A stretch of DNA of 64,000 bases from Oscillospiraceae bacterium. Its GTDB lineage: Bacteria > Bacillota > Clostridia > Oscillospirales > Acutalibacteraceae. The position numbers and the translations under genes were made by a program. The notes under the pieces are model-generated. The model was not told where the DNA came from. It ran no database searches and saw only the letters and a program-made list of their open reading frames with translations. Below are positions 108-13,475 of the stretch, piece by piece. The stretch spans positions 1-64,000 of the forward strand of contig SVOA01000001.1 of assembly GCA_015066635.1 (NCBI GenBank). Reading direction: 5' to 3'. Position 1 is the first letter of the stretch. Each line of letters opens with the position of its first letter.

Positions 108-284
108 CTTGCTTTTACACATTTGATTTCATCACTGCTTTTATTTCTCTGTTCAACGCAGAGTTTTTCTTTTTTTGAAATAATTTTTTCCAATATCCAA
201 AAAAGCAAACTGAAAAAGCCAACCTGCTGATTGTCCGTCAATCAGTCAATGACCACCAAAGGACCATCTATGAAATTCTAAAGC

Positions 285-316
285 AAAGACGTGGAACAAT
301 TTGTTCCACGTCTTTT
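285..316 (-). terminator. Terminator of the integrase gene
   Basis: AAAGACGTGGAACAA and TTGTTCCACGTCTTT form a near-perfect stem just beyond the integrase stop. It is flanked by A/T on both sides and could work in both directions. The stretch 108-284 holds no gene that I can support. Confidence 0.8.
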
Positions 317-328
317 TGATTTTTGTTA

Positions 329-1543
329 TTAACCTGCGTTCGTGTCAAGCTTAATTACATTGTCGCCGTCAAGGTCTTTTGTCTTATCCTCAAGCAGACC
401 TCCTATTGTGTCAGCCGCTTGCTGTTGCATATCATTAGTGACATGCATATATGTGTTCATTGTAAATCCTGCATCCGTATGTCCGAGCATGTGAGATACG
501 GTCTTGACATCTACTCCCTGCTCAAGCGAGAGCGTAGCGAAGGAATGTCGCAGATCGTGAAAGCGTATCCTCGGCAGCCCTGCCCTGTCCTGTATCTTAT
601 GAAGCCGTCTTGTTACCGAAGCCGGTTCTCGCATATCCCCTGTTATCGGTGACGGGAATATGTACTTGCTTTTAGGTTTCTGCTTCAGCTTTAATTCCAT
701 CAGCAGTTTTACGCACTCGTCACATAAAGATATTGTTCGGATTGAGCTTTTGGTTTTCGGAGGACTGACAATGTTCTCACCATGAATTCTCGTAACGGTT
801 TTGTTGACGGATATTGTCTTGTTCTTTTCATCGAAGTCTTTCCATGTCAGCGCACATATCTCGCCGAGCCGTAATCCCGTTGTCAGCTCAAGGTAATAGA
901 ATTCATACCAACCTGAGTTCTTCGCTTCACGAAGGAATGTTGTGATTTCTTCCTTTTTAAGCGTTTTCATTTCGTGCTTATCGCCTTGCGGCAGTTTTAC
1001 CTTCGAACACGGGTTGCTGACTATAAGCCCCTCATCAACAGCTTTCTGAAGACATATATTTAGCGCTCTGCGTATTCCGTTAACGCTTGAGATTGAGAGT
1101 CCGTTTCCTTTCTTTGTTCTTTGCCTGTCCCTGCCATCCGTATACAACTTCATCAGCATCTGCTGACAGGTAACGGTTGAGATTTCTCTTAATCTGCATT
1201 CTCCCAGCATCGGTAATATATACAATTCAAATCTCTGTCTGTATCCGTTGGCGGTATAGTCCTTGACAACCGCTTTGCAGAACACCTCCATCCATATATC
1301 GTACCATTCCTTTAGTGTAGGATCAGACGATTTCAAATACGTGTGCGTAAGGAAGATATTCTGCTGACTCGCATATTCTTTTTTAGCTTGTTCAAGCTTT
1401 GCGATACACTCCGACTTATTCTTAGCCGTGACGCTTTTGCGAATCGTCTTGCCGTCAACATCCTTGCCGAGCGTAAACCAGCCTTCCCATCTTCCGTCAT
1501 TTCTTTTGCGAAGTGTACCTTCGCCTTTGGCTCTTCGCGCCAT
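329..1543 (-). CDS. Tyrosine recombinase (phage/ICE-type integrase)
   Basis: This 404-residue protein has three parts: an N-terminal arm-binding region of the AP2-like type (about residues 8-60, with a GRWEGWF motif), a SAM-like core-binding domain (about 75-185) and a C-terminal catalytic domain. All catalytic landmarks are visible: Arg in TTGLRLGE (near 224), HDLRH (near 335), LGHT (near 360) and the Tyr nucleophile in MNTYMHV (near 370). The start is supported by GGAGGTG a few bases upstream. Family members integrate and excise phages and conjugative elements at tRNA 3' ends, and the adjacent tRNA-Tyr fits that. No excisionase, relaxase or conjugation gene is visible nearby. It may therefore be the remaining integrase of a small island covering the RNA-repair genes to its right. 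Confidence 0.93.
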   Translation of the reverse strand: MARRAKGEGTLRKRNDGRWEGWFTLGKDVDGKTIRKSVTAKNKSECIAKLEQAKKEYASQQNIFLTHTYLKSSDPTLKEWYDIWMEVFCKAVVKDYTANGYRQRFELYILPMLGECRLREISTVTCQQMLMKLYTDGRDRQRTKKGNGLSISSVNGIRRALNICLQKAVDEGLIVSNPCSKVKLPQGDKHEMKTLKKEEITTFLREAKNSGWYEFYYLELTTGLRLGEICALTWKDFDEKNKTISVNKTVTRIHGENIVSPPKTKSSIRTISLCDECVKLLMELKLKQKPKSKYIFPSPITGDMREPASVTRRLHKIQDRAGLPRIRFHDLRHSFATLSLEQGVDVKTVSHMLGHTDAGFTMNTYMHVTNDMQQQAADTIGGLLEDKTKDLDGDNVIKLDTNAG

Positions 1544-2277
1544 ATTATCACCTCCGACACAACAAATATCACAAATGTTTTCAAATATCCAGCGAAATAT
1601 ATAATTTTTTTAAGTGGGCTCGGGCTTCTGCCCGTTCTTCGGCTTGCCGAAACAAGACGCCTTCAGGCGACGCTTGGACTCTCCGACGGGGAGTTTTTAC
1701 CTGCTCCCGTAAACACGAGTCGGAAAAAGCGCCTTTTTCTAAGATAAAACCTATGTAACGAGTTCAGACACTCCCGTGAACCGTCATATACGAGAGTAAA
1801 CAAAATCCCGCACAGCGTTGCTGCTGCGGTGTTTTGCCGTCGCAAACCCGTTTTAACGGGAGCGGCTTTATCCTGCTTGTAAATACTCACTTTGAAATCA
1901 TCCGAAATCAAAGCAAAAACGCATGTCACACACACAAATACAACAACTCTCTAATTGCTCAAAATATGTTCACAAATGCCACAAAAACGATTTTGATTGC
2001 TTCGGCTGTTAGTTTTGCTGTCCGTTATCTGCTCGCTCGAATATCGCTGAAAAATCCGCCGACAGTTTTCGAAAGGTTTTATATATTGTTTGTGTGCAAT
2101 TTATTGCACGGGGGTAGCTCATTTTTTAACATACCGGGAACGGAGAAAATCATCCCTGAACAAGAACAAATGTTCTGTTTAGGGATGATTATATCATGTC
2201 CTTTTTCGGTTGTAAAGAGGGTTAGACGGGTAGTGTACTTCTTATGGGACATTGCCTTGCCCCAAGCCGTTTTTGTG
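1544..2277. other. Gene-poor stretch upstream of the integrase
   Basis: I find no convincing gene here. On the minus strand, about 1580-1760 reads as an open frame with no proper start (fragments such as SPEGVLFRQAE). It resembles a dispersed coding-like repeat that I recall from hypothetical proteins of gut clostridia, which I cannot verify. Short inverted repeats occur (for example ACCCGTTTTAACGGGA near 1849). The expected position of a small excisionase gene is empty. Confidence 0.5.
2148..2190. repeat. Long imperfect palindrome upstream of the WYL operon
   Basis: AATCATCCCT (2148-2157) pairs with AGGGATGATT (2181-2190). The inner arms AACAAGAACA and TGTTCTGTT also pair, with one bulged base, giving a stem of about 19 bp. 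No T run follows, so it may be a regulatory palindrome rather than a terminator. It lies about 90 bp upstream of the predicted WYL promoter. Confidence 0.6.
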
Positions 2278-2306
2278 TTGTAAAAAGCCATTTGATATGC
2301 TAAAAT
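2278..2306 (+). promoter_or_regulatory. Predicted sigma-70-type promoter for the WYL operon
   Basis: A -35 box TTGTAA (2278-2283), a 17-bp spacer and a -10 box TAAAAT (2301-2306) carrying an extended TGC just upstream. The leader to the ATG at 2370 is about 58 nt and holds a strong AGGGAGGTG ribosome binding site. Confidence 0.6.
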
Positions 2307-2369
2307 CAATGACAGGAATCTTTAATTGTGTCTTTGTAATAAAATGTAATTCTTCAGGGAGGTGAGAAT

Positions 2370-3611
2370 ATGGCGTACAGCGAGCTAATAAAGAGCTTCG
2401 AGAAAATACGCGAATACGTAAGTCAGTTTTACGTTTTCGGCTTTAAGTCACGAAGCGAATACACGTCGAAAAGCGCAAGAAGCTATGACAACGAGCGAAG
2501 ACGGATTGAAAGCTGGCTCGGAGATTATATGCAATTCCGCCACGAGAAGGGAGCAAAGAACTCCTTCCTCGCTCTCGACACACGCTCGGTTTCTCACAAC
2601 CCGCTTTACAATGCTTTCAAGGCAAAGAGTTTTACAGACAACGATATCAATCTGCATTTTTATATTTTTGACATCCTCGCCGAAGGATGTGAAAAGAGCT
2701 TCCGTCAGATTCTTGATTGCATAAGCGAGGATTATCTGGCAGTGTTTGACATCGACGGCGAAGCGGATGAATCCACAGTCAGAAAGAAGCTTCGCGAGTA
2801 TGAAAAGCTCGGACTTATTAAAAGCAGAAAGCAAGGCAGAGAGCTTCTGTATTCACGCTGTGACGATATTGCCGACCTTGACAGCTGGCAGGATGCGGCG
2901 GCGTTTTACTCCGAGGAGGATGCCCTCGGCGCAGTCGGCTCGTTTCTGCTTGACAAATTCGATTCACCGCCCGATTACTTTTCCTTCAAGCACCACTATA
3001 TTCTTCATGCGCTTGAGAGTGAAATTCTCGAGCAGCTTTTTGAGGCGATGCGTGAGCAAAAGAGCGCAGAGCTTACGATATACATACCCCGAAGCGACAA
3101 TATCAGAATTCATAATCTTCTGCCGCTTAAAATTTACTGTTCGACTCAGAGCGGCAGACGCTATCTGCTGGGCTATCATTACCGTTTAAGACGTATGACA
3201 TTCTTCCGTCTTGACAATATCAAGAAGGTTAAGCTGCTCAAAAAAGACGACAACTATGAAAAGCATTTTGAAAATGCGGAAAAATATAAGCGTAACCTCT
3301 GGGGCGTGGCTTCAACCTCCGCCAGAGGCACCGATCATATCGAAATGACCGTTTACGTCGCAGACGGTGAGGAATACATTATCAGACGGCTTGACCGTGA
3401 AAAGCGCTACGGCAGAGTTGACGCTCTCGACTCGCATCATTTCCGCTTTGTTGCCGACGTTTACGACGCTACGGAGATGCTCCCGTGGATTCGTACCTTC
3501 ACGGGCAGAATCGAAAAACTCGAATGCTCCAACAAGGCGGTCACCGAAACCTTCTTCGGTGATTTTGACGATATGCTCGCTATGTACGGAGGTGACGGAA
3601 ATGCTGTTTAA
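2370..3611 (+). CDS. WYL-domain transcriptional regulator (first of a pair)
   Basis: A 413-residue protein. A winged-helix-like segment (about residues 105-165, DESTVRKKLREYEKLGLIKS) precedes a WYL domain (about 225-300, with GRRYLLGYHYRLRRMTFFRLDNI) and a C-terminal WCX-like region. WYL domains are ligand-sensing modules of bacterial regulators. In PafBC and DriD they respond to single-stranded DNA, and WYL proteins are common beside nucleic-acid repair and defence genes. The stop overlaps the start of the second WYL gene by 11 nt, so the two are translationally coupled. A terminator then separates this pair from the RNA array and the repair genes, as expected for a dedicated controller. That it senses cut RNA is my inference. 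Confidence 0.88.
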   Translation: MAYSELIKSFEKIREYVSQFYVFGFKSRSEYTSKSARSYDNERRRIESWLGDYMQFRHEKGAKNSFLALDTRSVSHNPLYNAFKAKSFTDNDINLHFYIFDILAEGCEKSFRQILDCISEDYLAVFDIDGEADESTVRKKLREYEKLGLIKSRKQGRELLYSRCDDIADLDSWQDAAAFYSEEDALGAVGSFLLDKFDSPPDYFSFKHHYILHALESEILEQLFEAMREQKSAELTIYIPRSDNIRIHNLLPLKIYCSTQSGRRYLLGYHYRLRRMTFFRLDNIKKVKLLKKDDNYEKHFENAEKYKRNLWGVASTSARGTDHIEMTVYVADGEEYIIRRLDREKRYGRVDALDSHHFRFVADVYDATEMLPWIRTFTGRIEKLECSNKAVTETFFGDFDDMLAMYGGDGNAV

Positions 3612-4518
3612 CGAAATCTATTCAAGCTATTTCAACGTCGTTGCCGAAATACTCGCAAGGGCGTGCAGCGGCGAGCTGAAGCAATCGGATATCGGAAATA
3701 TCGTTTCAAAGAAAGCCTTCGGCGAAAGCATTTTGAACATACCCGCTTCGCTGAAAAACGGCGAATGGCTGCTTCTCAAGGACGATATGACAACCCCGAT
3801 TAAGAACGTTCCGACCATGCCGCTGACGCTGCTCGAAAAGCAGTGGATCAAGGCGCTTGAGCAGGACCCGAGAATACGGCTTTTTGCACCCAGCTTTGAG
3901 GGACTTGAGGATGTTGAACCGCTCTACCGTCGGGAATGGATAGAATATTTTGACCGTTACTCTGACGGCGACGATTTTGAGGATGAAAATTATATTGAAA
4001 ACTTCCGTCTGATTCTTAAAGCTCTGCGGGAATACAGACGCATTGCGGTTGATTTCAACGGCCGTCACGGTCTGCGGCAGAGAAAGGACTGTATTCCGTA
4101 TAAGCTCGAATATTCCTCTAAGGACGACAAATTCAGGCTGATTGCAATAAGCGGTGACAAACGCGGAAAGGGTTATTACACCCTCAATCTCTCACGCATA
4201 AAAACCGTTCGTGTGCTCGGTCGCTATCCCGTTGAGCAATACCGTCAGCCCGAGCCGGAGAGTGCATCAATAACGGTTGAGCTTACCGATGAAAGAAACT
4301 GCCTTGAACGGTTTATGATGAATTTCTCCCATCTTGAGAAGCAGGCGCAGAAGCTCGACGACCTTCATTACAGAATCACTCTCAAGTACGATAAGGATGA
4401 CGAAACCGAGATTCTTATCCGAATTCTTTCCTTCGGTCCGAAAGTAAAGGTTATTGAGCCCGATTACTTTATAGCTCTCATCCGTCAGAGACTTGAAAAG
4501 CAGGAGAAGTTAAACTGA
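3601..4518 (+). CDS. WYL-domain regulator (second of a pair)
   Basis: A 305-residue protein. I chose the ATG at 3601 because GGAGGTG lies eight bases upstream and the start overlaps the preceding stop; the frame stays open further upstream but has no such signal. The N-terminal 110 residues hold a winged-helix-like segment with the motif MPLTLLEKQWIKALEQDPR. The WYL domain follows (about 150-215, with KFRLIAISGDKRGKGYYTLNLSRI), then a C-terminal extension with an RILSFGPKVKVIEP segment typical of the WCX part. Tandem WYL genes recall the pafB-pafC pair, which acts as a heterodimer. The product probably works with its neighbour to control the array and the DUF2828-rtcB genes. That target is inferred from position only. 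Confidence 0.88.
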   Translation: MLFNEIYSSYFNVVAEILARACSGELKQSDIGNIVSKKAFGESILNIPASLKNGEWLLLKDDMTTPIKNVPTMPLTLLEKQWIKALEQDPRIRLFAPSFEGLEDVEPLYRREWIEYFDRYSDGDDFEDENYIENFRLILKALREYRRIAVDFNGRHGLRQRKDCIPYKLEYSSKDDKFRLIAISGDKRGKGYYTLNLSRIKTVRVLGRYPVEQYRQPEPESASITVELTDERNCLERFMMNFSHLEKQAQKLDDLHYRITLKYDKDDETEILIRILSFGPKVKVIEPDYFIALIRQRLEKQEKLN

Positions 4519-4547
4519 AAAACTCATAAAAAAGCAAAAAACATATA

Positions 4548-4577
4548 AAAAATCCCGATTTTTTTCGGGATTTTTTT
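4548..4577 (+). terminator. Terminator after the WYL pair
   Basis: AATCCCGA pairs with TCGGGATT around a T loop and is followed by seven T. It separates the regulator operon from the RNA array, so the array needs its own promoter. Between here and 4638 the only candidate is a -10-like TAAAAT at 4621 with no good -35 box, consistent with activator-dependent transcription. Confidence 0.85.
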
Positions 4578-4638
4578 GTTTTCGCAACTTTTTTTCCACG
4601 ATTATTCAGGAAAAAAGCGGTAAAATGCAATCACAGCG

Positions 4639-4747
4639 AAGGCACGAACAGCAAACGCAAAAAGTACCATTAGTTCCGGTTGGGGAACGCTTGCTTCAGA
4701 GGCAAGAGGTGCGGGTTCGACTCCTGCGTGACACTTTTAAGCGCCTT
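4639..4747 (+). ncRNA. Array module 1: tRNA cloverleaf mimic, anticodon CAG
   Basis: The closing helix AAGGCAC/GCGCCTT (4639-4645 with 4741-4747, one mismatch) is followed by GAACAGCAA. Inside is a complete class I cloverleaf: a 6-bp acceptor-like helix (AAAAGT 4660-4665 with ACTTTT 4733-4738); a D arm GTTCC/GGAAC (4673-4677 with 4684-4688) with loop GGTTGG; an anticodon arm CTTGC/GCAAG (4690-4694 with 4702-4706) with loop TTCAGAG, which keeps U33 and reads CAG (Leu); a 4-nt variable region; and a T arm GCGGG/CCTGC (4711-4715 with 4723-4727) with loop TTCGACT. It is not a normal tRNA. There is no CCA, the acceptor is short and embedded in an outer helix, and true tRNA-Leu has a long variable arm. 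Bacterial Y RNAs also carry tRNA-like domains. Confidence 0.85.
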
Positions 4748-4757
4748 GAAGCTGTGT

Positions 4758-4820
4758 GAGATGCAGGGCAGCAATATTCTGAAATTCCATGTCGGGTAAG
4801 TTCTGACACAGCGAGCATCT
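4758..4820 (+). ncRNA. Array module 2: mimic of 23S rRNA helices 70-71
   Basis: The closing helix GAGATGC/GCATCTC (4758-4764 with 4814-4820) is followed by GGCAGCAA. The insert contains GAAATTCC, then TGTCGGGTAAGTTC, then GAC and CGA, in the same order and nearly the same spacing as the conserved E. coli 23S rRNA segment near 1930-1970 (H70 3' strand, H71 and beyond). I compared it from memory. GTC/GAC closes the H71-like hairpin. GCTGTGT (4751-4757) could also pair with ACACAGC (4806-4812); this crosses the closing helix, so it is either an alternative fold or a pseudoknot. Mycobacterial MazF-mt6 and MazF-mt3 cut this rRNA region at UUCCU; the copy here reads UUCCA. Confidence 0.75.
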
Positions 4821-4825
4821 CGTAA

Positions 4826-4912
4826 AAGGCACGAACAGCAAACCGTTATGGTAAAGCAGAGGGCTGAAACCCTCGCCGCTGCAGGTCCGAATCCTGTTAA
4901 ATACCGTGCCTT
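4826..4912 (+). ncRNA. Array module 3: tRNA-like RNA with a GAA anticodon arm
   Basis: An 8-bp perfect closing helix AAGGCACG/CGTGCCTT (4826-4833 with 4905-4912) is followed by AACAGCAA. The anticodon-like arm GAGGG/CCCTC (4859-4863 with 4870-4874) has loop CTGAAA, which keeps the U33-GAA-A37 order of tRNA-Phe in a 6-nt loop. A T arm GCAGG/CCTGT (4881-4885 with 4893-4897) has loop TCCGAAT. GGTAAAGC before the anticodon arm resembles the 3' part of a tRNA D arm. No acceptor stem or CCA is visible. Confidence 0.8.
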
Positions 4913-4926
4913 GTAAATTTGTTAAT

Positions 4927-5121
4927 AAGATGCAGACAGCAATTACCCATGAATGCCCGCGGACTCCTTAGCGGAAAGATACCTGCAGCAGAAAATGATC
5001 GGACGCGGTCGGGAATTTCCCGCTGCGCAGACTGAAGCGGTTTACCGCGGAGGGCCTAACAAAACCCCTAAAGTATCTTGAGCAATCCGCATGGGACAGC
5101 GGGAGGTAAGGCAGGCATCTT
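4927..5121 (+). ncRNA. Array module 4: large structured RNA of unknown identity
   Basis: The closing helix AAGATGC/GCATCTT (4927-4933 with 5115-5121) is followed by AGACAGCAA. The 180-nt interior has nested helices: TTACC/GGTAA (4943 with 5105), CCCATG/CATGGG, AAGATAC/GTATCTT (4976 with 5072), and local hairpins CGGG-AATTT-CCCG, GCGG-TTTA-CCGC and CCGC/GCGG. The last has a 10-nt loop containing ACTCCTTA, which resembles the anti-Shine-Dalgarno end of 16S rRNA; that likeness is short and may be chance. I do not recognise the whole as a known RNA. Confidence 0.7.
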
Positions 5122-5124
5122 GAA

Positions 5125-5207
5125 AAGGCGCCCGCAGCAATCAGTCAGATTACGGAGACGGCTGCTAACCGTCATACCGAATTGCGTTGCAACACGCAAA
5201 GCGCCTT
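5125..5207 (+). ncRNA. Array module 5: tRNA-Ser(GCU) anticodon-arm mimic
   Basis: A perfect closing helix AAGGCGC/GCGCCTT (5125-5131 with 5201-5207) is followed by CCGCAGCAA. Inside, the arm GACGG/CCGTC (5157-5161 with 5169-5173) carries the 7-nt loop CTGCTAA, identical to the loop of the genuine tRNA-Ser(GCT) gene at 49355-49445. A second hairpin TTGCGT/ACGCAA (5182 with 5194) stands where a T arm would be, but its loop is not TTCGA-like. There is no acceptor stem or CCA. Confidence 0.8.
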
Positions 5208-5215
5208 GTTATTGA

Positions 5216-5294
5216 AAGACACTGACAGCAATAATTCTTTTATTTCCACTGAATGGGCTATTGAAAAAGAACCCTATCAAAGAAGATGTGTCTT
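5216..5294 (+). ncRNA. Array module 6: structured RNA in the DUF2828 leader
   Basis: A perfect closing helix AAGACAC/GTGTCTT (5216-5222 with 5288-5294) is followed by TGACAGCAA. The A/T-rich interior can fold with TTCTTTT opposite AAAAGAA; I do not recognise it. The module ends 28 nt before the start codon of the DUF2828 gene, so its folding or processing could affect translation. A TATAAT at 5296-5301 has no good -35 box. Confidence 0.7.
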
Positions 5295-5322
5295 GTATAA
5301 TCCAAATGAGGAGGAAAAGATA

Positions 5323-6789
5323 ATGATTAACGAACTTAAAAACGAAGCTAATAAAACGAGAACCGAAAACGGTGCGGCGACTTTGAAAAGCTCGGGCGAT
5401 TACTGCCTCGACCTTTTTGCCTCGGTAGGTGCGTTGCGCCATGCCGACGATACCGAAATCGTAAACCGCTTCATCAGAGCGTTTACGGAAAATCCCGACC
5501 TTGCGATGAAAATCCTTTTCTTCGCAAGAGACATAAGAGGCGGTCTCGGCGAACGCAGAGTGTTCAGAATAATTCTCGCCTGGCTCGCTATGAATAAGAG
5601 CGAAACCGTCAAGAGAAACATTGAATTCATCGCCGAATACGGCCGCTGGGACGACCTGACCGTATTGCTCGGCACTCCCTGTGAGGACGAAGCGGTATCG
5701 CTGATTTACAGAACGCTTCGCAGCGATCTTGAGAATATGAGTAACGGCGGAGAGGTTAGCTTGCTTGCAAAATGGCTTCCCTCGGTCAACACGAGCAACC
5801 GTGAAACTGTTAAAACGGCGAAAAAACTCGCAGGAAAGCTCGGACTTAGCGAAGCCGAATACAGAAAAACTCTGTCCTCGCTTCGCGCATACATAAAAAT
5901 AATCGAAAACAATCTGCGTGAAAGAGATTACAGTTTTGACTACGAAAAGCAGCCCTCGAAAGCGCTTTTCAAATACCGCTCGGCGTTTCTCGAAAACGAT
6001 GCGGAGCGTTACAAAGCCTTCCTTGAGAGAGTTAATCTCGGCGAGGCGAAGATGAACACGGGTACACTGATGCCCTATGAGATAATCAGGCCTCTTTGTG
6101 AATGGAACTGTAAGGAATTGAGCGCAGAGGAGTCTCAGGCGTTAGACACTACCTGGAATGCACTCGCAAACTACTGCGACGGCAGAAACGCTCTGGCGGT
6201 AATCGACGGCTCAGGCTCTATGTACTGCTACGGAAACCCCGTTCCTGCTTCGGTTGCGCTTTCTTTGGGTATTTACTTCGCCGAGCATAACACCGGAGCA
6301 TTCAAAAACCATTTTATCACCTTCTCTGAAAGTCCTCAGCTCGTTGAAATCAAGGGCAGGAGCATTGAGGAAAAGGTAAGATACTGTATGACGTTTGACG
6401 AGGTTGCAAACACCGATATTCAGAAGGTCTTTGAGCTGATACTCAATGCGGCGCTTAACAATAATGTTCCTCAGTCCGAGCTTCCCGAAACGCTGTATAT
6501 CATTTCCGATATGGAATTTGATTGCTGTGCGGAAAATGCGGATATGACGAACTTTGAGTATGCAAAGAAGCTTTTTGAGGAAAACGGCTACAAGCTTCCG
6601 AACGTAGTTTTCTGGAACGTTCAGAGCCGAAACACTCAGGTTCCCGTAAAGAAAAACGAGCAGGGCGTCGCCCTCGTTTCGGGTTGTACGGCGAAGCTGT
6701 TTGAAGCGGTAATGAACGGTGAGCTTGATCCGTATGAATTTATGCTTTCGGCAGTATGTACCGAAAGATACGAAAAAATAGCAGCATAG
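5323..6789 (+). CDS. DUF2828 / Ro60-like TROVE-vWA RNA-binding protein
   Basis: A 488-residue protein. The ATG at 5323 has GAGGAGG just upstream; the frame stays open back into the RNA array, but that extension is non-coding RNA. The N-terminal two thirds is helical and TROVE-like, with RDIRGGLGERRVFR (near 70-83), IAEYGRWDDL (near 105) and LLAKWLPS (near 150). The C-terminal third is a von Willebrand factor A fold with the MIDAS motif DGSGSM (near 300), a YIISDMEFD strand and a VVFWNVQSR segment. These are hallmarks of DUF2828, a family related to Ro60. Ro60 proteins bind Y RNAs and misfolded RNAs, and in bacteria are often encoded with rtcB. The array RNAs just upstream are its likely ligands. 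The rtcB gene follows after 39 nt. Confidence 0.87.
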   Translation: MINELKNEANKTRTENGAATLKSSGDYCLDLFASVGALRHADDTEIVNRFIRAFTENPDLAMKILFFARDIRGGLGERRVFRIILAWLAMNKSETVKRNIEFIAEYGRWDDLTVLLGTPCEDEAVSLIYRTLRSDLENMSNGGEVSLLAKWLPSVNTSNRETVKTAKKLAGKLGLSEAEYRKTLSSLRAYIKIIENNLRERDYSFDYEKQPSKALFKYRSAFLENDAERYKAFLERVNLGEAKMNTGTLMPYEIIRPLCEWNCKELSAEESQALDTTWNALANYCDGRNALAVIDGSGSMYCYGNPVPASVALSLGIYFAEHNTGAFKNHFITFSESPQLVEIKGRSIEEKVRYCMTFDEVANTDIQKVFELILNAALNNNVPQSELPETLYIISDMEFDCCAENADMTNFEYAKKLFEENGYKLPNVVFWNVQSRNTQVPVKKNEQGVALVSGCTAKLFEAVMNGELDPYEFMLSAVCTERYEKIAA

Positions 6790-6828
6790 GAAGGGTTAAA
6801 TCCCTTCCCGTGCGGAAAGGGATTAATT

Positions 6829-8049
6829 ATGATAGAGATAAACGGCGCATTTGCCGCCGCAAAGGTTTTTGCAAATACAATTGACGACACCGCCATAGAG
6901 CAGCTCGAGGTACTCTGCTCTCAGGAGTTTACAAAGGATGCAAAAATCAGAATTATGCCCGACGTTCACGCCGGCAAGGGCTGTACGATAGGCTTTACCG
7001 CAAATTTAGGCGATATGGTTATTCCGAATATTGTCGGAGTCGATATAGGCTGCGGTATGCTATGCGTGACACTCGGCAAAATTGATATTGACTTTGAGCG
7101 CTTTGACGGAATCGTAAGAAAATACGTTCCCTGCGGCAGAGAGGTGCACGAGGGCAGAATTGCGAAATTCCCCGCCCTTCAGGATATGAACTGCTACCGT
7201 TCGCTCAAGGATACCAAGCGTATCGTGCGCTCGCTCGGCACTCTCGGCGGAGGTAATCACTTCATAGAGCTTGACACGGATGACGGCGGCTGTATTTACC
7301 TCGTTATACACACCGGCTCGAGAAATCTCGGCAAGCAGGTTGCGGAGCATTATCAGGAGATGGCTTACGATATCGCCCGTGGGGCAGATAATCTGCTCGA
7401 GGCGCAGAGAAAACTCATTGACGAGTATAAGGCTCAGGGCAGACGAAGCGAAATTCAGGCTCAGCTTATTAAAATGAAGAAGGAGTTCAAGCTTAAGGAG
7501 AGCGAAATCCCGAAGGATTTATGCTATCTTACGGGCAAGTACAGACAGATGTATCTCGACGATATGGCCGTCTGTCAGGAGTTTGCGGCGCTCAACAGAA
7601 CGCTTATTGCAAATTCGATACTCGAGAATTATTTCTCCAAGCCTTTTTCGGAGTATGAGAGCTTCGAGACGGTACACAACTACATTGATCTTGAGAACAA
7701 TATCGTGCGTAAGGGCGCGGTTTCGGCGCAGAAGGGCGAAATGCTCTTAATCCCTATCAATATGCGTGACGGCTCGCTTATCTGCGTCGGCAAGGGAAAT
7801 GAGGACTGGAACTGCTCGGCGCCTCACGGGGCGGGCAGACTTCTCTCGAGAACCGATGCGAAGGACGTACTTTCAATGGATGAGTACAAGCGCGAAATGC
7901 AGGGCATATTTACCACCTGCATAAACGAGCATACGCTCGACGAGTCGCCTATGGCGTACAAGAATAAGGATGAAATCGTCTCCTGCATCGGCCCCACAGC
8001 AGATATAGTCAAGCAGATAAAGCCGATATATAACTTCAAGGCGAATTAA
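6829..8049 (+). CDS. rtcB: RNA-splicing ligase RtcB
   Basis: A 406-residue RtcB, close to the usual short bacterial form. It joins RNA ends bearing a 2',3'-cyclic phosphate or 3'-phosphate to 5'-OH ends, using GTP and manganese. The metal and catalytic residues are visible: VGVDIGCGM (Asp and Cys ligands, near 74), GGGNHF (His, near 140), HTGSRNLG (near 163), ETVHNYID (near 285) and SAPHGAGR (near 335), whose His is guanylylated in the family. Its substrate ends are those left by most ribonuclease toxins. It lies 39 nt behind the DUF2828 gene and is surely co-transcribed. No RtcA cyclase or archease gene is present. Confidence 0.96.
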   Translation: MIEINGAFAAAKVFANTIDDTAIEQLEVLCSQEFTKDAKIRIMPDVHAGKGCTIGFTANLGDMVIPNIVGVDIGCGMLCVTLGKIDIDFERFDGIVRKYVPCGREVHEGRIAKFPALQDMNCYRSLKDTKRIVRSLGTLGGGNHFIELDTDDGGCIYLVIHTGSRNLGKQVAEHYQEMAYDIARGADNLLEAQRKLIDEYKAQGRRSEIQAQLIKMKKEFKLKESEIPKDLCYLTGKYRQMYLDDMAVCQEFAALNRTLIANSILENYFSKPFSEYESFETVHNYIDLENNIVRKGAVSAQKGEMLLIPINMRDGSLICVGKGNEDWNCSAPHGAGRLLSRTDAKDVLSMDEYKREMQGIFTTCINEHTLDESPMAYKNKDEIVSCIGPTADIVKQIKPIYNFKAN

Positions 8050-8640
8050 GACCGTGATCCCATTGCTGAGCCGTCCTTGTGGCTATGTTCCGCATTGGCG
8101 TTAGCCGGGACATTGGTTTTAAGATAGTATCAAAGCGGACAGTAACTCCGCTTTGATACAGGTGATTCGGCTATAATCGGCGGCAATCGGAGCCGTCCTT
8201 CACTGACCGGATTGCCGATTCACGCAGACACCGCTTCGGTTGGCGTGTCAACACTTGTGCTGCCGCCCTTCGCCGAAGACGCAGAAGCTGATGCTATGTG
8301 CGGGCGCATCTCCCCTTCGGGGGAGACAGACGCAACGACGCCTCCGTCAGCTACGGATAAATACGGCTTGAACCGACTTGGGCAATCGGAGCCCTATGTC
8401 CGTAAACCGATTTAGCGTTTCGGTATCTGCAAAACGAAGGCTTCGCAGCTCACTCGGGATTCCTCTGAGGGGTTGCGAAGTCATTCGAAAAGGAAATAAC
8501 GGACTCCCGTTCGGCGTTTCGGACGTTACGCAGGGGTATAAGTATATCTGCGAGCTCGGGGTCTGTTTTTTCGCATCAGAGGTGAGGGGCAGGCTCTCAT
8601 CGCCTTCGCATTAAGACGGTCACCGCCGACTGTAGGCGGT
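8050..8640 (+). ncRNA. Hairpin-rich non-coding region after rtcB (proximal part)
   Basis: No credible gene is present. Clear hairpins are: AGCC/GGCT (8069-8084); a 12-bp perfect stem GTATCAAAGCGG/CCGCTTTGATAC (8127-8138 with 8148-8159); CGGCAATCGG with CCGGATTGCCG (8181-8217); GACAC/GTGTC (near 8226); TCTCCCC-TTCG-GGGGAGA (8309-8326); CCGT-CAGCT-ACGG; and GCTTCGCA with TGCGAAGT (near 8440-8490). GGCAATCGGAGCC occurs twice (8182 and 8381), each time as a hairpin with 7-nt loop AATCGGA. GAGCCGTCCTT also occurs twice (8068 and 8190). This suggests repeated RNA modules like those upstream of the DUF2828 gene. Confidence 0.55.
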
Positions 8641-8652
8641 CTTTTCACCGTC
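8615..8652 (+). ncRNA. Nested hairpin with 7-nt loop GACTGTA
   Basis: The outer stem GACGGT/ACCGTC (8615-8620 with 8647-8652) encloses an inner stem ACCGCC/GGCGGT (8622-8627 with 8635-8640). The 7-nt loop is GACTGTA. The loop size suits an anticodon arm but U33 is missing, so I do not assign an anticodon. Confidence 0.5.
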
Positions 8653-8734
8653 GCAGGCGGTCATCTTGCCAAGAAGTAGCCTTTGATATACGGTCTCCCC
8701 CAAAAGAAGCACTGCGTTCTGAGGGCATGAGACC

Positions 8735-8779
8735 TCGGTTTCGCCTAACGGAACTTGTATTCCACAGGCATGAAACCGA
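8735..8779 (+). ncRNA. Module with a Thr(UGU)-like anticodon arm
   Basis: Three nested helices: TCGGTTTC/GAAACCGA (8735-8742 with 8772-8779), GCCT/AGGC (8743-8746 with 8766-8769) and GGAA/TTCC (8750-8753 with 8760-8763). The loop is CTTGTA, the order C32-U33-UGU-A37 of a threonine tRNA with one loop base missing. Confidence 0.6.
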
Positions 8780-8783
8780 AAAG

Positions 8784-8823
8784 GCTCATATAATCCGGCG
8801 TTGAAACCGGAGGCGCATTGAGC
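8784..8823 (+). ncRNA. Module with a TTGAAA anticodon-like loop
   Basis: GCTCA/TGAGC (8784-8788 with 8819-8823) encloses the stem TCCGG/CCGGA (8794-8798 with 8807-8811). The 8-nt loop CGTTGAAA resembles the CTTGAAA loop of tRNA-Ser(UGA) with one extra base. A Gln(UUG) reading is also possible, so the identity is uncertain. Confidence 0.5.
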
Positions 8824-8917
8824 GCAGTATGGGCAGCGGTGTTTCGGACAATTCGTAATACGGCAATTGGCATTAGTGGAGATTATCTCTTCATGCCCGC
8901 CGTGCGAATTGTTTCGA
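8824..8917 (+). ncRNA. Region with mutually exclusive helices
   Basis: GGGCA (8831) can pair with TGCCC (near 8894), and ACAATTCG (near 8848) with CGAATTGT (near 8905). The two helices cross, so this is either a pseudoknot or a switch. GGCAT/ATGCC with an inner GAGA/TCTC hairpin lies between. The identity is unknown. Confidence 0.4.
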
Positions 8918-8968
8918 GATGCGTTTTTGTCATCAAACACGGGTTAAATCCCGTGATAAAAGCGTATC
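8918..8968 (+). ncRNA. Module with a Leu(UAA)-like anticodon arm
   Basis: The outer pairing is GATGCG/CGTATC (8918-8923 with 8963-8968) and TTTT/AAAA with one bulged G. The inner stem CACGGG/CCCGTG (8938-8943 with 8950-8955) carries the loop TTAAAT. Opening the closing pair gives GTTAAATC, which has U33, anticodon UAA and A37 as in tRNA-Leu(UAA). Confidence 0.55.
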
Positions 8969-8969
8969 G

Positions 8970-9027
8970 GCAATCATGATGACAGGGCTAGGGAGGTTTG
9001 TAATCTGAACCCTTTGCACTTGATTGC
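8970..9027 (+). ncRNA. Module closed by GCAATCA/TGATTGC
   Basis: A perfect 7-bp closing helix (8970-8976 with 9021-9027) encloses AGGG/CCCT and a loop containing TTTGTAA. This could mimic a Thr(UGU) loop, but only three base pairs support that arm, so the assignment is weak. Confidence 0.45.
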
Positions 9028-9033
9028 TAAGCA

Positions 9034-9050
9034 CCGCACGTTAACTGCGG
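9034..9050 (+). ncRNA. Hairpin with a GTTAA loop, Asn-like but lacking U33
   Basis: The perfect 5-bp stem CCGCA/TGCGG (9034-9038 with 9046-9050) has the 7-nt loop CGTTAAC. tRNA-Asn has CTGTTAA; the shared part is GTTAA, but the U before the anticodon is absent. Confidence 0.4.
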
Positions 9051-9105
9051 CGTTAAAAATTGCCGTCCACTCAGACAGTCGGTGATTAACTTGTGCCGCA
9101 AAAAT

Positions 9106-9161
9106 AGGCTCACATCGCTTCGGGCGTACTCCCTTCGGCTTTGCAAACGGAAATTGAGCCT
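9106..9161 (+). ncRNA. Module closed by AGGCTCA/TGAGCCT
   Basis: A perfect 7-bp closing helix (9106-9112 with 9155-9161) encloses CGC-TTCGG-GCG and a further unassigned stretch. GGCTCA is also the 5' strand near 8783. I do not recognise the insert. Confidence 0.5.
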
Positions 9162-9209
9162 CTGTCCTGCGAAAGCGGTCTTGAAAACCGCCGACGCAGG
9201 GCAGTTTTT
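9162..9209 (+). ncRNA. Ser(UGA) anticodon-arm mimic that doubles as a terminator
   Basis: Three stacked helices: CTG/CAG (9162 with 9202), CCTGCG/CGCAGG (9166-9171 with 9195-9200) and GCGGT/ACCGC (9175-9179 with 9187-9191). The 7-nt loop is CTTGAAA. The 16 bases at 9175-9190, GCGGTCTTGAAAACCG, also occur in the anticodon arm of the tRNA-Ser(TGA) gene at 49573-49661. TTTTT follows directly, so the structure should also end transcription. Confidence 0.75.
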
Positions 9210-9275
9210 CAACGGAATGAAACGATAACCGACTTTAATTATTTAATAATCAGGTTTTCCGAAGGTGTTATTATT

Positions 9276-9983
9276 ATGAAAAAAGATAAAAAAATCAGAC
9301 CGAGAATTACTAAAGGTCTTGTCGATATATGCAATGAATACGCAGTTGATTATGCGCTTGCAGAACAGTATATAAACAATCACAAACTGACGCCGCAGGA
9401 GGTTACGTACGCGGCAATTTGTTTAGTGCAGCTGAATCAGGATGAATATCAATATGCTCACTGGGATGATATCGTTGACGAAAACTACATATACAAGACC
9501 GATAATTTTGACAAGACATTTGAACTGTTTTTTAAGCACGGACTTATGCCGAATGAATTATTCCCAGGTGAAACATATTCTGAAAATTTGATTGATGAAA
9601 TAAGAGCCATTTTTAATGGAACGGTGTCCGCTGAACTTTTAAAGATGATATACGAACATGGCGGAGATCCCAATTTGGAAATTGATGGCGAAAAGTTCTT
9701 TGAGAATTTGGATTCAGATATTGTTTCCGATATTGATCTCGGCTACTATTTTGAGGATTATTATAAACCTAATTTTGATTCATTATTTGCAATATGGCTG
9801 GTCTCTATGAGTTACGGAGGAGTTATGTCAGGAGGACGCACCCCCGTCAAGTTAGAAAACGGATATACTGTTTCTGATTTCCGTGACTTCAAGCGCTTTA
9901 CGCACAAACTTGAAGAAACACTTCACGATTGGTATCTTCATATAATTGACCGTGAGAACGGATTGGTTGCGGGTATCGTTTAA
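9276..9983 (+). CDS. Acidic protein of unknown function in the RNA-repair island
   Basis: A 235-residue protein; GAAGGTG upstream of the ATG at 9276 sets the start. I do not recognise the family. It is acidic, rich in aromatic and Asp/Glu residues, has no signal peptide or membrane segment, and carries LLKMIYEHGGDPNLEIDG (about residues 120-137), reminiscent of a single ankyrin-like repeat. The C-terminal part (SLFAIWLVSMSYGG, then FRDFKRF) resembles small cytoplasmic proteins often found as immunity or accessory proteins. Its A/T-rich sequence differs from the G/C-richer hairpin region before it, and it follows a terminator. A role in the RNA-repair system is suggested only by position. Confidence 0.7.
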   Translation: MKKDKKIRPRITKGLVDICNEYAVDYALAEQYINNHKLTPQEVTYAAICLVQLNQDEYQYAHWDDIVDENYIYKTDNFDKTFELFFKHGLMPNELFPGETYSENLIDEIRAIFNGTVSAELLKMIYEHGGDPNLEIDGEKFFENLDSDIVSDIDLGYYFEDYYKPNFDSLFAIWLVSMSYGGVMSGGRTPVKLENGYTVSDFRDFKRFTHKLEETLHDWYLHIIDRENGLVAGIV

Positions 9984-10070
9984 AAACGGATAATAGATTT
10001 TTCTTTTAAGCTTTAACAGCAAATCTTTTTCTGCGAGTTTTATCTCACGGACGTATTTATAAAATACAAT

Positions 10071-10135
10071 CGCAGAACATAACGGGAAGAGTACTGCTTT
10101 TTCAGTCCAAACCGTATTATGTTCTGCGTTTTCTT
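10071..10135 (+). terminator. Long hairpin after the unknown protein
   Basis: CGCAGAACAT (10071-10080) pairs with ATGTTCTGCG (10119-10128), with CGG/CCG continuing inside and a T-rich tail TTTTCTTTTT. It may simply terminate transcription, but the 38-nt loop is unusually large and could be a small RNA. The rest of 9984-10270 holds no gene; the island's right end probably lies here. Confidence 0.55.
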
Positions 10136-10270
10136 TTTCAAAATGCTTTTTCTTTAAATCCGGAAATCGTTTAAAATCTTTGCATATTAAATCTCAATCC
10201 GTTGACATGTTTCAAAACTATCTACAACACCATAGCGCCTTTGACCGCCCGTACATTTTTTATTTTATTT

Positions 10271-11290
10271 TCAGTCCTCAAAGCCGTTGGGGTTCTGCGA
10301 CTGCCAGCGCCATGAGTCCTCGCACATCTCCTCAATGTCTCTCTTTGCTTCCCAGCCGAGCACTTCCTTTGCCTTCTGCGGGTCAGAGTAACAAACGGCT
10401 ATATCTCCGGGTCTGCGCGGAGCAATTTTATAGTTGATTTTAACTCCCGTGGCCTTCATAAATGCGTTTACTATGTCGAGAACGCTGTATCCCTTGCCCG
10501 TGCCGAGGTTAAAAATCTGCACGCCCTTTTTGCCCTCAAGTATATTCTTAACCGCCTTGACATGCCCGTCGGCAAGGTCAACAACGTGTATGTAATCACG
10601 AACGCCCGTACCGTCGGGAGTATCGTAGTCGTCGCCGTAAACCGAGAGGCAGGGAAGTCTGCCGATAGCGACCTGAGTGATATAGGGCATAAGGTTATTG
10701 GGAATTCCGTTGGGATTTTCTCCTATTCTGCCGCTCTTGTGCGCGCCTATGGGATTGAAATAGCGAAGCAGGGTTGCGTTCCACTCCCCGTCAGCCTTGC
10801 ATATATCCTCGAGAATAATCTCTATCATATACTTGGTTGTACCGTAGGGGTTGGTCGTGCCGCCCGTTTTCATTGTTTCCTTCAGCGGCGAAACATTGTT
10901 CATTCCGTAAACCGTTGCCGAGGAAGAAAAGACAATATTCTTACAGCCGTTGTCACGCATTACCTCGCACAGCTTAACGGTGCCGCCTATGTTGTTGTCA
11001 TAGTACTCCATCGGTTTTTTGCAGGACTCGCCTACCGCTTTAAGACCTGCAAAGTGAATTACCGCGTCAATTTTATTCTCCTTGAATATTTTGTCCATAC
11101 CCTCTTTGTCGCGGATATCGCACTCATAGGCTTTGAAATCCTTGCCCGTGAGTTCCTTTATCCTGCCGAGAGATTTCGGACTGGAATTGTAATAGTTATC
11201 AACTACAACTATGTCGTAGCCCGCATTGAGAAGTTCTACGCAGGTGTGAGAGCCGATGAAACCGGCTCCGCCCGTAACGAGAATTGCCAT
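10271..11290 (-). CDS. galE: UDP-glucose 4-epimerase
   Basis: A 339-residue extended short-chain dehydrogenase. It interconverts UDP-glucose and UDP-galactose (Leloir pathway; also supplies surface polysaccharides). The N-terminal NAD-binding motif [10 protein letters not shown] is at residues 5-14. The catalytic Ser in SSSATVYG (near 124) and the YxxxK pair in YGTTKYMIE (near 150) are present, and the C-terminal substrate region is full length. I place the start at the ATG before AILVTGG because GGAGGGA lies seven bases upstream; a longer frame of ten extra residues lacks such a site. It stands 22 bp after the SpoIID-domain gene on the same strand. Confidence 0.95.
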
Positions 11291-11312
11291 TTTACTGTCC
11301 CTCCTGAAAAGT

Positions 11313-13475
11313 TTACGCATTATCGCTGATAACGATAGTGGTCGGATAATATGTGGTTAAGATTTTACCGTATTTTGCGCCGCCTATTGCAAGTCTGTCT
11401 GCGCCCGTCTGACTCATTCCGACACCGTGTCCCTTGCCGTAGGTCGTTACGGTAAACGCATTATTCTCGGCATCAAAGGAAAGGCTGAAGCAGGTTGAAG
11501 CAAGTCCCTTTTCCTTCATCATACCGTAGATGAATTCAAGTCCCGAAATTTCCCTGTCTCCTACCGCTATTGTCTGAACGTAACCCACATCGTTGCTGAC
11601 CGCGGTATCGTGGCTCTTAATTGCAAGCCATGCTCCGACATCCTCGCCGAAGTTAATTGTTTCGTCATATGCCTTTGCGGCGGTCTTAATATCCTCAGCC
11701 GTGAGGAGAGTATCAACCTTATAGCCGTCTCTCTTTGTATCGGAAGTGCTGTTTACTCCGCCGAGATAATCGAACTTTACGCCGAAAATGAGCTCGGAGG
11801 ATGCGGTCTTACCCGCCGACATATAGGTAAACGGAGTAAATGCGGGAACGGGGTTGCTGTTGCTTACCATAAGGTATTTGCCGTAAACATCGGAAACCGC
11901 GTCATAAACCTCCTGTGAATATGCGTCCGCAAGTTTAAGTCCGTCAACAACCCAGCCTGTATTTCTATATTTGAGGTAAGTGTAGGTTACTACTGCCTGT
12001 GCCTTGATGGCTTCGGTACTGAAGTCCTTGCTCATCTCTGCCTCGACTATTCTTGCTATTGCTTCCTTTGCCTCTATATCCGTGCCGTTAACCGTAATAA
12101 CCGACGGAAGTCCGTTTGAACGTTCGGTAACGGGCTCAGTTGTTGTTTCCTCGCTGTCAATGGCGCCTACCGTGGTGGTCTCTGCAGGCGTGTTGTCCTC
12201 GGGCTTCTGAATACCGTTTACCATCTCGTATCTGATGAAGTCCGAAAGTACCATATCCTCTAACTTGACGGGAGCCTCGGTGGTGGTTTCGGGCTCTGCC
12301 GTAGTGATTTCGGTTGTCGCCTCGGTGGTGGTTTCGGGCTCTGCTGTCTTATTCTTTATGAAGTAAAGCGCCGCAACAACTGCCGCCGCAACAAGAATAA
12401 CGGAAAGAACGGCGAGCAGAATCTTTTTGCCCTTGCCTGTCTTTGTCTTATTCGGAGCCTCATCCTGCGCTATCTCAATTCCTACTGCTCCGTTGCCCGT
12501 AACCTTCTCGCTGATGAGCGCAAACAGTTCCTCTGCCGCACCCGCGATAAATCTGTCGTCTGTCTCGTTCTCTTCCTTATAAAGCTTTCTTACAAGCGCA
12601 GATTTGTCGGTTGCAACCGAGATGCAGATGTAGTCGCACTCGTCGTTGCTGAAAATGTCGGAAATGCAGGCGCCGAAATCGGCATTTGAAAGTCCCTTTG
12701 CGCTTCTCGCCATCTGAGCGGTATAGTCGGTTACGTTATAGTCGCCTCTGTCCTCAATATGGGGAGTGAAGGTAAAGTAATCGTTAAAGTCCTCGAGATT
12801 CTCTCCGAGGCTGCGAAGTACATTTGAATTCGCATTTCCGTTGACCGCAATTTTTATATCGTTCTCTCTGAGTATATTAAGGGTTCTGACGGCAACCGCT
12901 TTTTCGTTGTCCGTGAAGTTATACTCGGGCTTGCTCTCTCCCGTTTCCTCCTTTGCCTCCTCCTTGGGAGCAGGCGCGGGCTTGGGCGCGGAACCGCCCG
13001 TAAGATAGGGTACAAGCCCTCTCTTTATAACCGTGTCCGTATAGTTGTCGTCAAGCGGGATGACAGCTATCTGCTGCTTGCCTTTCTTTACGGCAAAGCC
13101 CGAGCAAACGCCGTCCGCCGAGTAGAATATATCGGCATTTTCAGGCATAAGCGCATTATTTCTCACAGCGTCTTCGTCAAGTCCGAGCGAGCTGAGCTTA
13201 TTTACAAGCTCCCCGTCCTCCGCGGTCTTTAACGACAGCGCCGCCATAAGCTTGATTTTGGTCTTGTTGTAAATGTCGGACGAAACGGCAATTACAATGA
13301 ATTCGCTCTCTTTAAGCGCCTTTGTAAGTGAACCGAAAAGTCCTTTCAGCGTTGTGTGCTCCTCAAAGGAAATGTCATTGTCCGCAAAGTTGTTAAGGTT
13401 GCCTATAACCTTAATTTTCTGCTTTACGGGAATGCTCTCGCCTTCCTTTTTAAGTAATAATAACTTCATATCCAT
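11313..13475 (-). CDS. Membrane-anchored SpoIID/LytB-domain protein
   Basis: A 720-residue protein. The first 330 residues are cytoplasmic and unrecognised, interrupted by a Pro/Ala/Glu-rich linker near 165-180. One membrane segment follows (about 350-372, [20 protein letters not shown]), then a Thr/Glu-rich low-complexity linker with repeated EPETTTEA. The outer C-terminal part (about 455-720) is SpoIID-like: IVEAEMS carries the putative catalytic Glu, and [13 protein letters not shown] is the family's conserved end motif. SpoIID is a lytic transglycosylase that trims stem peptide-free glycan during engulfment; LytB relatives act at other stages. The long cytoplasmic domain is unusual and suggests a regulator rather than the sporulation enzyme itself. 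Two sortase genes lie upstream. Confidence 0.82.

What the first reader, a model, noticed from the sequence alone, without database searches (positions are those of the whole stretch)
2278..9983. RNA-repair island: WYL pair, Y-RNA-like array, DUF2828/Ro-like protein, RtcB and a second block of mimic RNAs
Seen: a WYL-WYL operon with its own promoter and terminator, then six structured modules, then DUF2828-vWA and rtcB in one operon, then about 1.2 kb of hairpins. Known: bacterial Ro60/Y RNA/rtcBA operons link a Ro protein, tRNA-like Y RNA and RtcB, controlled in Proteobacteria by the CARF sigma-54 activator RtcR, which responds to tRNA fragments. Here WYL proteins replace RtcR and DUF2828 replaces Rsr. 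A whole set of different RNAs that copy tRNA and rRNA sites takes the place of one Y RNA. Inference: this is a ribotoxin-defence system in which the RNAs are decoys, damage sensors or guides that bring the Ro-like protein and RtcB to cut RNAs.
Basis: partly seen in the sequence, partly recalled or inferred. Interest (0 to 1): 0.96.

Follow-up and report, generated by a model that had tools for sequence, protein, structure and literature searches.

The report
Ro-like protein with mimic-RNA array
Gut bacteria and many phages carry, beside a Ro60-like protein, a row of small RNAs that share one clamp and often display look-alikes of pieces of tRNA or ribosomal RNA, perhaps as bait for enzymes that cut those RNAs.

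The parts
2278..2306 (+). promoter-like site of the WYL pair (weak evidence)
   Evidence: TTGTAA-17-TAAAAT; number of such sites in the region is at chance level
2370..3611 (+). WYL regulator 1
   Evidence: Pfam WYL E 5.6e-5, above cut-off; homologues of both WYL proteins in 30 of 67 loci with 3.5 kb upstream
3601..4518 (+). WYL regulator 2
   Evidence: Pfam WYL and WCX just under cut-offs; PADLOC WYL 6e-14
4547..4576 (+). terminator-like hairpin of the WYL pair
   Evidence: 12-pair stem plus T-run
4581..4597 (+). class A promoter box TTCGCAACTTTTTTTCC
   Evidence: box in 25 of 30 WYL-pair loci, 0 of 29 single-WYL loci, 1 of 8 with neither
4621..4626 (+). -10-like TAAAAT before module 1
   Evidence: sequence; similar element seen by eye in many listed loci
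4639..4747 (+). module 1: tRNA-like core, anticodon loop TTCAGAG (CAG, Leu)
   Evidence: clamp with one A-C mismatch; tRNA model hit 4664-4735, 34.8 bits, 42.1 bits
4758..4821 (+). module 2: 23S rRNA look-alike (E. coli 1935-1961; H70/H71 by recalled numbering)
   Evidence: 25 of 27 nt identical; 0 of 300 shuffles reach the score
4826..4912 (+). module 3: tRNA-Phe-like (near-twin L021 has a CTGAAAA loop)
   Evidence: clamp; fold z -3.2; weak tRNA model hit, 10.8 bits, E 5.6
4927..5121 (+). module 4: 195-nt module, payload unidentified
   Evidence: clamp; no 23S similarity above shuffles
5125..5207 (+). module 5: anticodon-arm-like hairpin, loop CTGCTAA (GCT, Ser)
   Evidence: clamp; 5-bp stem and 7-nt loop
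5216..5294 (+). module 6: possible 23S 865-918 look-alike (weak)
   Evidence: clamp; 2 of 300 shuffles reach the gapped score; strict scoring finds another place, reached by 16 of 300
5323..6789 (+). DUF2828/DUF7788 protein with Ro60 fold
   Evidence: Pfam; AF2 pLDDT 84.5; top ten PDB rows all Ro60/TROVE
6829..8049 (+). RtcB RNA ligase
   Evidence: Pfam 2.4e-61
8050..9260 (+). structured stretch without clamp modules; membership uncertain
   Evidence: single copy in the genome; 8741-8773 matches L084 and 9052-9093 matches L014, both between modules of DUF2828 arrays

Best explanation
Shown: DUF2828 is a Ro60-fold protein genetically tied to a family of clamp RNAs. Each RNA has a shared clamp (7-bp covarying helix, NNACAGCAA-type motif after the 5' arm, G(U) after the 3' arm) and its own payload, which in a substantial minority of cases copies, in sense, part of a tRNA and in a few cases part of 23S rRNA. 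Inferred: the Ro-like protein binds the clamp and keeps a menu of baits in the cell. A WYL regulator switches the array on when RNA is being damaged. Anticodon nucleases and rRNA-cutting toxins bind or cut the baits instead of the true RNAs. In bacteria RtcB reseals cut tRNAs and perhaps the baits. Phages use the same baits against host nucleases, notably Lys-UUU anticodon arms. The changing anticodon of orthologous modules reflects a changing set of attackers.
Against: No binding, cleavage, expression or phenotype data for these loci. Most payloads match nothing tested: 33 of 215 modules carry a tRNA-model hit at E<0.01, and 5 of 228 score 30 or more against 23S in sense. Two interiors also score 30-31 against 16S in antisense, where shuffles gave none, against a purely sense rule. 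Phage payloads show no rRNA match above shuffles and no exact 11-nt match to the 27 tRNA arms tested, which lacked Lys-UUU and Asn-GUU. Viral loci have RtcB in only 1 of 80, so repair of baits cannot be the general rule. Acceptor stems are not always lost: of ten tRNA-like modules aligned, five lack four or more acceptor pairs, four have one or two mismatches, one (L063) is intact, so processing into a real tRNA is not excluded for some. The link of Lys-UUU to host nucleases such as PrrC is recalled, not tested; AT-rich phage genomes could favour TTT loops. The anticodon result rests on one ortholog group.
Confidence: 0.5

Rival explanations
1. Sensor array. Each module is a tripwire: when a toxin cuts it, the freed ends or the changed leader RNA signal to the WYL regulator or raise DUF2828-rtcB expression. 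The last module sits in the 5' leader of DUF2828.
For: Last module ends a median 39 nt before the DUF2828 match start, 60 nt or less in 58 of 84 loci; WYL types are paired with their own array promoter boxes; the related RtcR operon is regulated by damaged tRNAs (PMC7790460, title, start of abstract and passages seen).
Against: In 80 viral loci the WYL queries found nothing within the fetched flanks, yet modules are kept and diverse; a tripwire would not need a conserved protein clamp.
Confidence: 0.2
2. Y-RNA-like gate or adaptor. The modules regulate access of damaged or misfolded RNA to the Ro ring, or tether Ro to tRNA-handling enzymes; payload mimicry serves docking, not baiting of toxins.
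For: Ro60 fold; YrlA has a tRNA-like domain and is encoded in an rtcBA operon (PMC7790460 passages); the authors of PMC12282133 suggest Y RNAs for abundant transcripts near the phage Ro-like gene (passages).
Against: One adaptor would do; most loci have two or more modules and the anticodon of an orthologous module changes between relatives.
Confidence: 0.22
3. Cis-regulatory leader: the modules are a tandem riboswitch or attenuator of DUF2828-rtcB and act only in cis.
For: Position in the leader.
Against: Some viral modules lie downstream of DUF2828 or kilobases away, and 45 of 61 grafted clamps lie inside tRNA-like bodies; payloads vary while the clamp is conserved.
Confidence: 0.05
4. Decayed tRNA genes or chance hairpins without function.
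For: Many payloads are partial tRNAs.
Against: Clamp covariation, strand bias, promoter boxes, link to DUF2828.
Confidence: 0.02

Closest known systems
Bacterial Ro60 (Rsr) - Y RNA (YrlA/YrlB) - rtcBA operon
   Same: Ro-fold protein, non-coding RNAs with tRNA-like parts beside it, RtcB ligase, a ligand-binding type of regulator
   Different: DUF2828 instead of a TROVE Pfam match, WYL instead of RtcR, several different RNAs with a shared clamp, no YrlA match at the Rfam cut-off in the sources searched
Listeria phage CKA15 Ro-like protein CKA15_055 and nearby abundant RNAs (PMC12282133)
   Same: Ro-like by HHPred in that paper; I find three clamp modules just upstream of that gene
   Different: In the passages and the one section I read, the paper suggests Y RNAs without describing a clamp, payloads or anticodon mimicry, and does not tie the abundant transcripts to these three modules
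Phage tRNA arrays with RNA ligases (e.g. Listeria phage LP-048, Escherichia phage EF202P1)
   Same: DUF2828 beside tRNA arrays, in LP-048 also RtcB and an RNA ligase
   Different: True tRNAs keep a full cloverleaf; clamp modules usually have a reduced acceptor stem (9 of 10 aligned show missing or mismatched pairs) or the clamp grafted at the anticodon side
Band-7/tRNA-like RNA and ROT/TROVE RNA-repair systems surveyed by Burroughs and Aravind 2016 (recalled; paper not held)
   Same: scaffold protein plus tRNA-like RNA plus ligase
   Different: single tRNA-like RNA as recalled, not an array of different mimics

Membership tests
Ro60/TROVE proteins | HEAT-repeat ring followed by vWA domain with MIDAS | tested here: met
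Ro60/TROVE proteins | sequence membership in a TROVE profile | tested here: not met
   Only DUF2828 and DUF7788 match in Pfam; the profile finds no PDB chain at E up to 1
Ro60/TROVE proteins | binds RNA | not testable with these tools
   no binding data; PHROGs names the family 'RNA-binding protein' by annotation
Y RNA (YrlA, RF02553) | match to the Rfam model at its cut-off | tested here: not met
   window 1-16000 no hit; in 12 loci two hits of 25 bits (cut-off 69), neither at a counted module
Y RNA (YrlA, RF02553) | encoded beside a Ro-type gene | tested here: met
   modules upstream of DUF2828 in 84 of 91 loci
RtcR-rtcBA RNA-repair operon | RtcB ligase present | tested here: met
   Pfam RtcB at 6829-8049
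RtcR-rtcBA RNA-repair operon | RtcR sigma-54 activator and RtcA cyclase present | tested here: not met
   not among Pfam hits of the six window proteins tested; other loci were not searched for them
tRNA genes | complete cloverleaf with 7-bp acceptor stem | tested here: inconclusive
   window module 1 pairs 5 of 7 and is called tRNA-Leu; of ten other tRNA-like modules one is intact, four have 1-2 mismatches, five lack 4 or more pairs
known anti-phage defence systems (PADLOC) | DUF2828 or RtcB model match | tested here: not met
   only the two WYL proteins match any model

The most novel reading that the evidence does not exclude
A modular RNA-bait repertoire: a Ro-fold protein carries interchangeable look-alikes of tRNA and rRNA target sites, displayed on one clamp that can be attached to a tRNA at the acceptor side, by circular permutation, or as a hairpin grafted at the anticodon arm. 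Bacteria and phages both use it in a contest over RNA-cutting toxins, and new specificities arise by changing a few payload bases.
Probability: 0.42. Interest if true: 0.97.

Novelty: new variant of a known kind. Interest (0 to 1): 0.9.

Why it matters
It gives the unassigned domains DUF2828/DUF7788 a fold and a likely partner RNA, defines an RNA family that no Rfam model matched here except tRNA, and offers a concrete test of what bacterial Ro/Y RNA systems are for. If baiting is right, it is a modular defence against RNA-cutting toxins used on both sides of the phage-bacterium conflict, and its payloads would be a readable record of which RNA sites are attacked. It also shows how annotation tools can call false tRNAs (module 1 is called tRNA-Leu).

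Tried and rejected
RNase P and tmRNA mimicry, which I suspected by eye, are not supported: for RNase P one of six modules (L023) was reached by 1 of 200 shuffles, the other five by 39-155 of 200; for tmRNA six of six payloads were reached by 42 or more of 200. tmRNA hits (13 of 228 at 30 or more) are, I think, its tRNA-like end. The RNase P references were partly in the wrong orientation, so that column is not used. Antisense guides: thought unlikely on strand bias, though two antisense 16S scores of 30-31 stand. Distinct neighbouring clamps within an array: 12 of 144 adjacent pairs equal, shuffles mean 14.0. Phage payloads versus rRNA: best 27.5, shuffle maximum 28. 23S claims for L014 5209, L003 1246, L067 5698, L017 2441 and window modules 4 and 6 are weak or not significant. 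The BLAST against rRNA had flanking tRNAs in the reference and is not used. The reverse-complement control for generic anticodon hairpins is uninformative (42 versus 39 in phages, 62 versus 78 in bacteria) because such hairpins are near-symmetric; the CTNNNAA test replaces it. The own genome has no 16S match, so E. coli and Anaerofustis rRNA were the references. Families absent are not excluded.
Full report
WHAT IS THERE. The window lies in a 1.73-Mb, 38-contig genome. The island holds two WYL proteins, a DUF2828/DUF7788 protein and RtcB. Between the WYL pair and DUF2828 lie six RNA modules (4639-4747, 4758-4821, 4826-4912, 4927-5121, 5125-5207, 5216-5294). Each begins with a 7-nt arm, three spacer bases (four in module 2), then CAGCAA, and ends with the complementary arm (one A-C mismatch in module 1) followed by G.

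RELATED LOCI. A scan of genome contigs for the DUF2828 protein gave 96 relatives, of which the best 80 were kept. With the window and relatives from 300 family genomes I had 91 loci with a DUF2828 match; L001 is the window itself and L011 had no match, so both were left out. The loci are not all independent: L021 is nearly identical to the window, and L003 and L020 share the same array. The scanner found 250 modules within 3.8 kb upstream of DUF2828 in 84 of 91 loci, 18 on the reverse strand, and 7-16 in five shuffles. Of these, 228 pass a stricter cut, 220 of them distinct. A permissive rescan gave 271 forward and 16 reverse, in 87 of 91 loci. Of the 7 loci without a module, three start within 90 bases of the contig end (L010, L075, L085), L012 is a fragment, and L009, L087 and L090 are 42-53% identical relatives.

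THE CLAMP. The consensus is A-AARRYRC-NNA-CAGCAA ... GYRYYTT-G(T). To avoid circularity I took 169 sites AARnnnnnnACAGCAA and asked whether any nYTT|G arm downstream is fully complementary at pairs 3-7: 149 are; when 5' arms are dealt among sites the mean is 17.6, SD 4.1, maximum 30 in 200 deals. The motif is CAGCAA in 207 of 250.

TIE TO DUF2828. Over the same 300 family genomes, the pattern AAGGYRCNNACAGCAAN{40,70}GYRCCTTG (one form and length range of the clamp) occurs in 5 genomes, all among the 11 with a DUF2828 match (two of these 11 matches are partial or weak) and on the contigs of that gene, and in none of the other 289; six DUF2828-positive genomes lack this particular form.

NEIGHBOURHOOD. 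Of 67 loci with at least 3.5 kb upstream, 30 carry the WYL pair, 29 a single divergent WYL-family protein, 8 neither (one member of the single type was tested and is WYL by Pfam). The box TTCGCARCTTTTTTTYC is in 25 of 30 pair loci, 0 of 29 single loci and 1 of 8 others; TGGGGTT...CTGCWTCT is in 22 of 29 single loci, 0 of 30 pair loci and 0 of 8 others. So each regulator type goes with its own array promoter. RtcB is somewhere in the locus in 52 of 77 loci with at least 1.5 kb downstream; some of the 25 misses have only 1.5 kb of flank. One further gene cluster of RNA-repair type, RlaP, is in 5 loci (one member tested). The last module ends a median of 39 nt before the DUF2828 match start, 60 nt or less in 58 of 84.

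THE PAYLOADS. They are diverse, and most match nothing I tested. T-arms occur in 57 of 228 interiors, in 0 of 228 reverse complements and in 0-3 of 228 in ten shuffles. A tRNA model built from 17 tRNAs of this genome hits 33 of 215 modules at E<0.01 (the 13 modules of reverse-oriented loci were left out). Of ten such modules aligned, five lack four or more acceptor pairs, four have one or two mismatches there, and one is intact. Loops CTNNNAA on a perfect 5-bp stem number 29 in sense and 6 antisense in bacteria, 25 and 0 in phages. Fourteen of 220 interiors contain an exact 11-nt anticodon-arm core from a set of 27 taken from tRNAs of this genome (Phe 6, Met 6, Ser 2), antisense 0; phage modules 0 of 140, but the set lacked Lys-UUU and Asn-GUU. 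Against rRNA, 5 of 228 interiors score 30 or more with 23S in sense and none in antisense, shuffles none; two score 30-31 with 16S in antisense. Window module 2, which is outside the 228, copies 23S 1935-1961 (25 of 27 nt; 0 of 300 shuffles). Single-module shuffle tests, not corrected for having picked the best of many, are also good for L003/L020 (1934-1965) and L002 1027 (866-919), fair for L082 5491 (866-919), L002 467 (1943-1962) and L002 828 (1862-1884), weak for window module 6.

FAST ANTICODONS. In one orthologous module of eight Butyrivibrio or Lachnospiraceae loci the anticodon differs in 55% of pairwise comparisons, the rest of the loop in 18%, the stem in 32%, the rest of the module in 15%; with three more divergent members the figures are 56, 20, 36 and 23%. 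The anticodons are GTC, GTT, GTA, TGG, TAA, GGT and GAT.

PHAGES. DUF2828 occurs in 681 of 50,697 phage records and 4 of 72,556 plasmid records. Of 85 viral loci (80 of 505 relatives in the viral contigs, plus 5 phage genomes), 80 are distinct; they give 153 modules forward and 1 reverse, in 53 loci, while six control motifs give 1-9. Forty-two of 140 distinct modules of up to 200 nt have an anticodon-type hairpin (shuffles mean 4.2, maximum 8), and TTT (Lys) leads with 14. A second topology appears: the clamp as a hairpin, 3' arm - short loop - 5' arm - NN - ACAGCAA, 61 forward and 0 reverse, in 30 loci, control motifs 0-8; 45 of 61 lie between a D-arm box and a T-loop, that is inside a tRNA body at the anticodon side. 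In the 55 distinct ones the loop begins with G in 47 and GT in 29, recalling the G(T) that follows the 3' arm in ordinary modules. In 80 bacterial loci the same scan gives 13 forward and 1 reverse, none in a tRNA body. Together 63 of 80 viral loci have one form or the other. Some modules hold circularly permuted tRNAs (T arm, acceptor, D arm), seen by eye in L142, L145, L147, L220 and in bacterial L083 and L089; I did not count or test these. RtcB is within the fetched flanks in 1 of 80 viral loci and the WYL queries in none.

EXPRESSION, FROM THE LITERATURE. In Listeria phage CKA15 the Ro-like protein CKA15_055 was found in purified particles (20 peptides, 57% coverage), and three very highly transcribed regions lie within 2 kb upstream in the same direction (PMC12282133; passages and section 8 read). 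I find three clamp modules between that gene and the next one upstream (record 25552-25290). The paper's coordinates for one of the most active regions, 26,236-26,727, are not the modules; whether the modules are one of the other two I cannot tell from what I read.

MECHANISM. Shown: a covarying clamp, its tie to a Ro-fold protein, payloads that where identified are mostly sense copies of tRNA or 23S parts, regulator-specific promoter boxes, presence in bacteria and phages. Inferred: binding of the clamp by the protein, induction on damage, and baiting of RNA-cutting toxins. The RtcB link in bacteria suits cuts whose ends RtcB can join (recalled chemistry). I give baiting 0.5, Y-RNA-like gate or adaptor 0.22, sensor 0.2.

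SECOND BLOCK. 8050-9260 is single copy, has several well-folded segments and no clamp. Two short pieces, 8741-8773 and 9052-9093, match stretches between modules in L084 and L014, which hints at shared non-clamp elements, no more.

NOVELTY. Of Rfam families, only tRNA-type models matched modules above cut-off in what I searched: window 1-16000 and 26 loci. Ten searches of a 5.39-million-paper open library listed no description of DUF2828-linked RNA arrays except the Y-RNA suggestion in PMC12282133; several searches had more hits than the rows listed, and subscription papers and preprints were not searchable. The system works like a Ro-Y RNA system, but it fails the sequence tests for TROVE and YrlA, hence 'new variant of a known kind'.

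Noticed in passing
window 1-73 and 329-1543 (-): A tRNA 3' part at the window edge is followed by a phage-type integrase gene, so the island may lie in or beside an integrated element.
   Followed up: no
window 9276-9983; L080 8830-9405 and 9682-10206: An ORF with no Pfam or NCBIfam match downstream of rtcB; two homologues (27-28% identity) lie downstream of RtcB in a Synergistes locus.
   Followed up: partly
L143 3457-4008; L174 581-1134: ROOL-type large RNA near phage DUF2828 loci (L174 363 bits, above cut-off; L143 90 bits, below 99.1). Not found in the related CKA15 region at E 0.01.
   Followed up: partly
L041 9800-12154, L048 9312-9841, L037 9482-10180, L038 1170-2368: tRNA gene clusters lie within a few kb of several Butyrivibrio or Lachnospiraceae DUF2828 loci; tRNA-like genes also sit between modules, e.g. 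L015 5796-5868 and L017 4812-5215.
   Followed up: no
window 4663-4736: ARAGORN calls module 1 a tRNA-Leu gene; clamp modules may cause false tRNA annotations.
   Followed up: yes
L187 8185-8281: skipping-rope RNA (62 bits, above cut-off) beside a viral DUF2828 locus.
   Followed up: no
L014 5159-5208, L030 3168-3230, L002 950-1026: By eye, some arrays share between modules another short motif around GGCAATTG in a hairpin, without CAGCAA; meaning unknown.
   Followed up: no
L054 5187 and L019 5186: Two payloads score 30-31 against 16S rRNA in antisense, above all shuffles; not explained.
   Followed up: no
PMC12282133, CKA15_055: The phage Ro-like protein was reported in purified virions, so it might enter the host with the DNA.
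   Followed up: no
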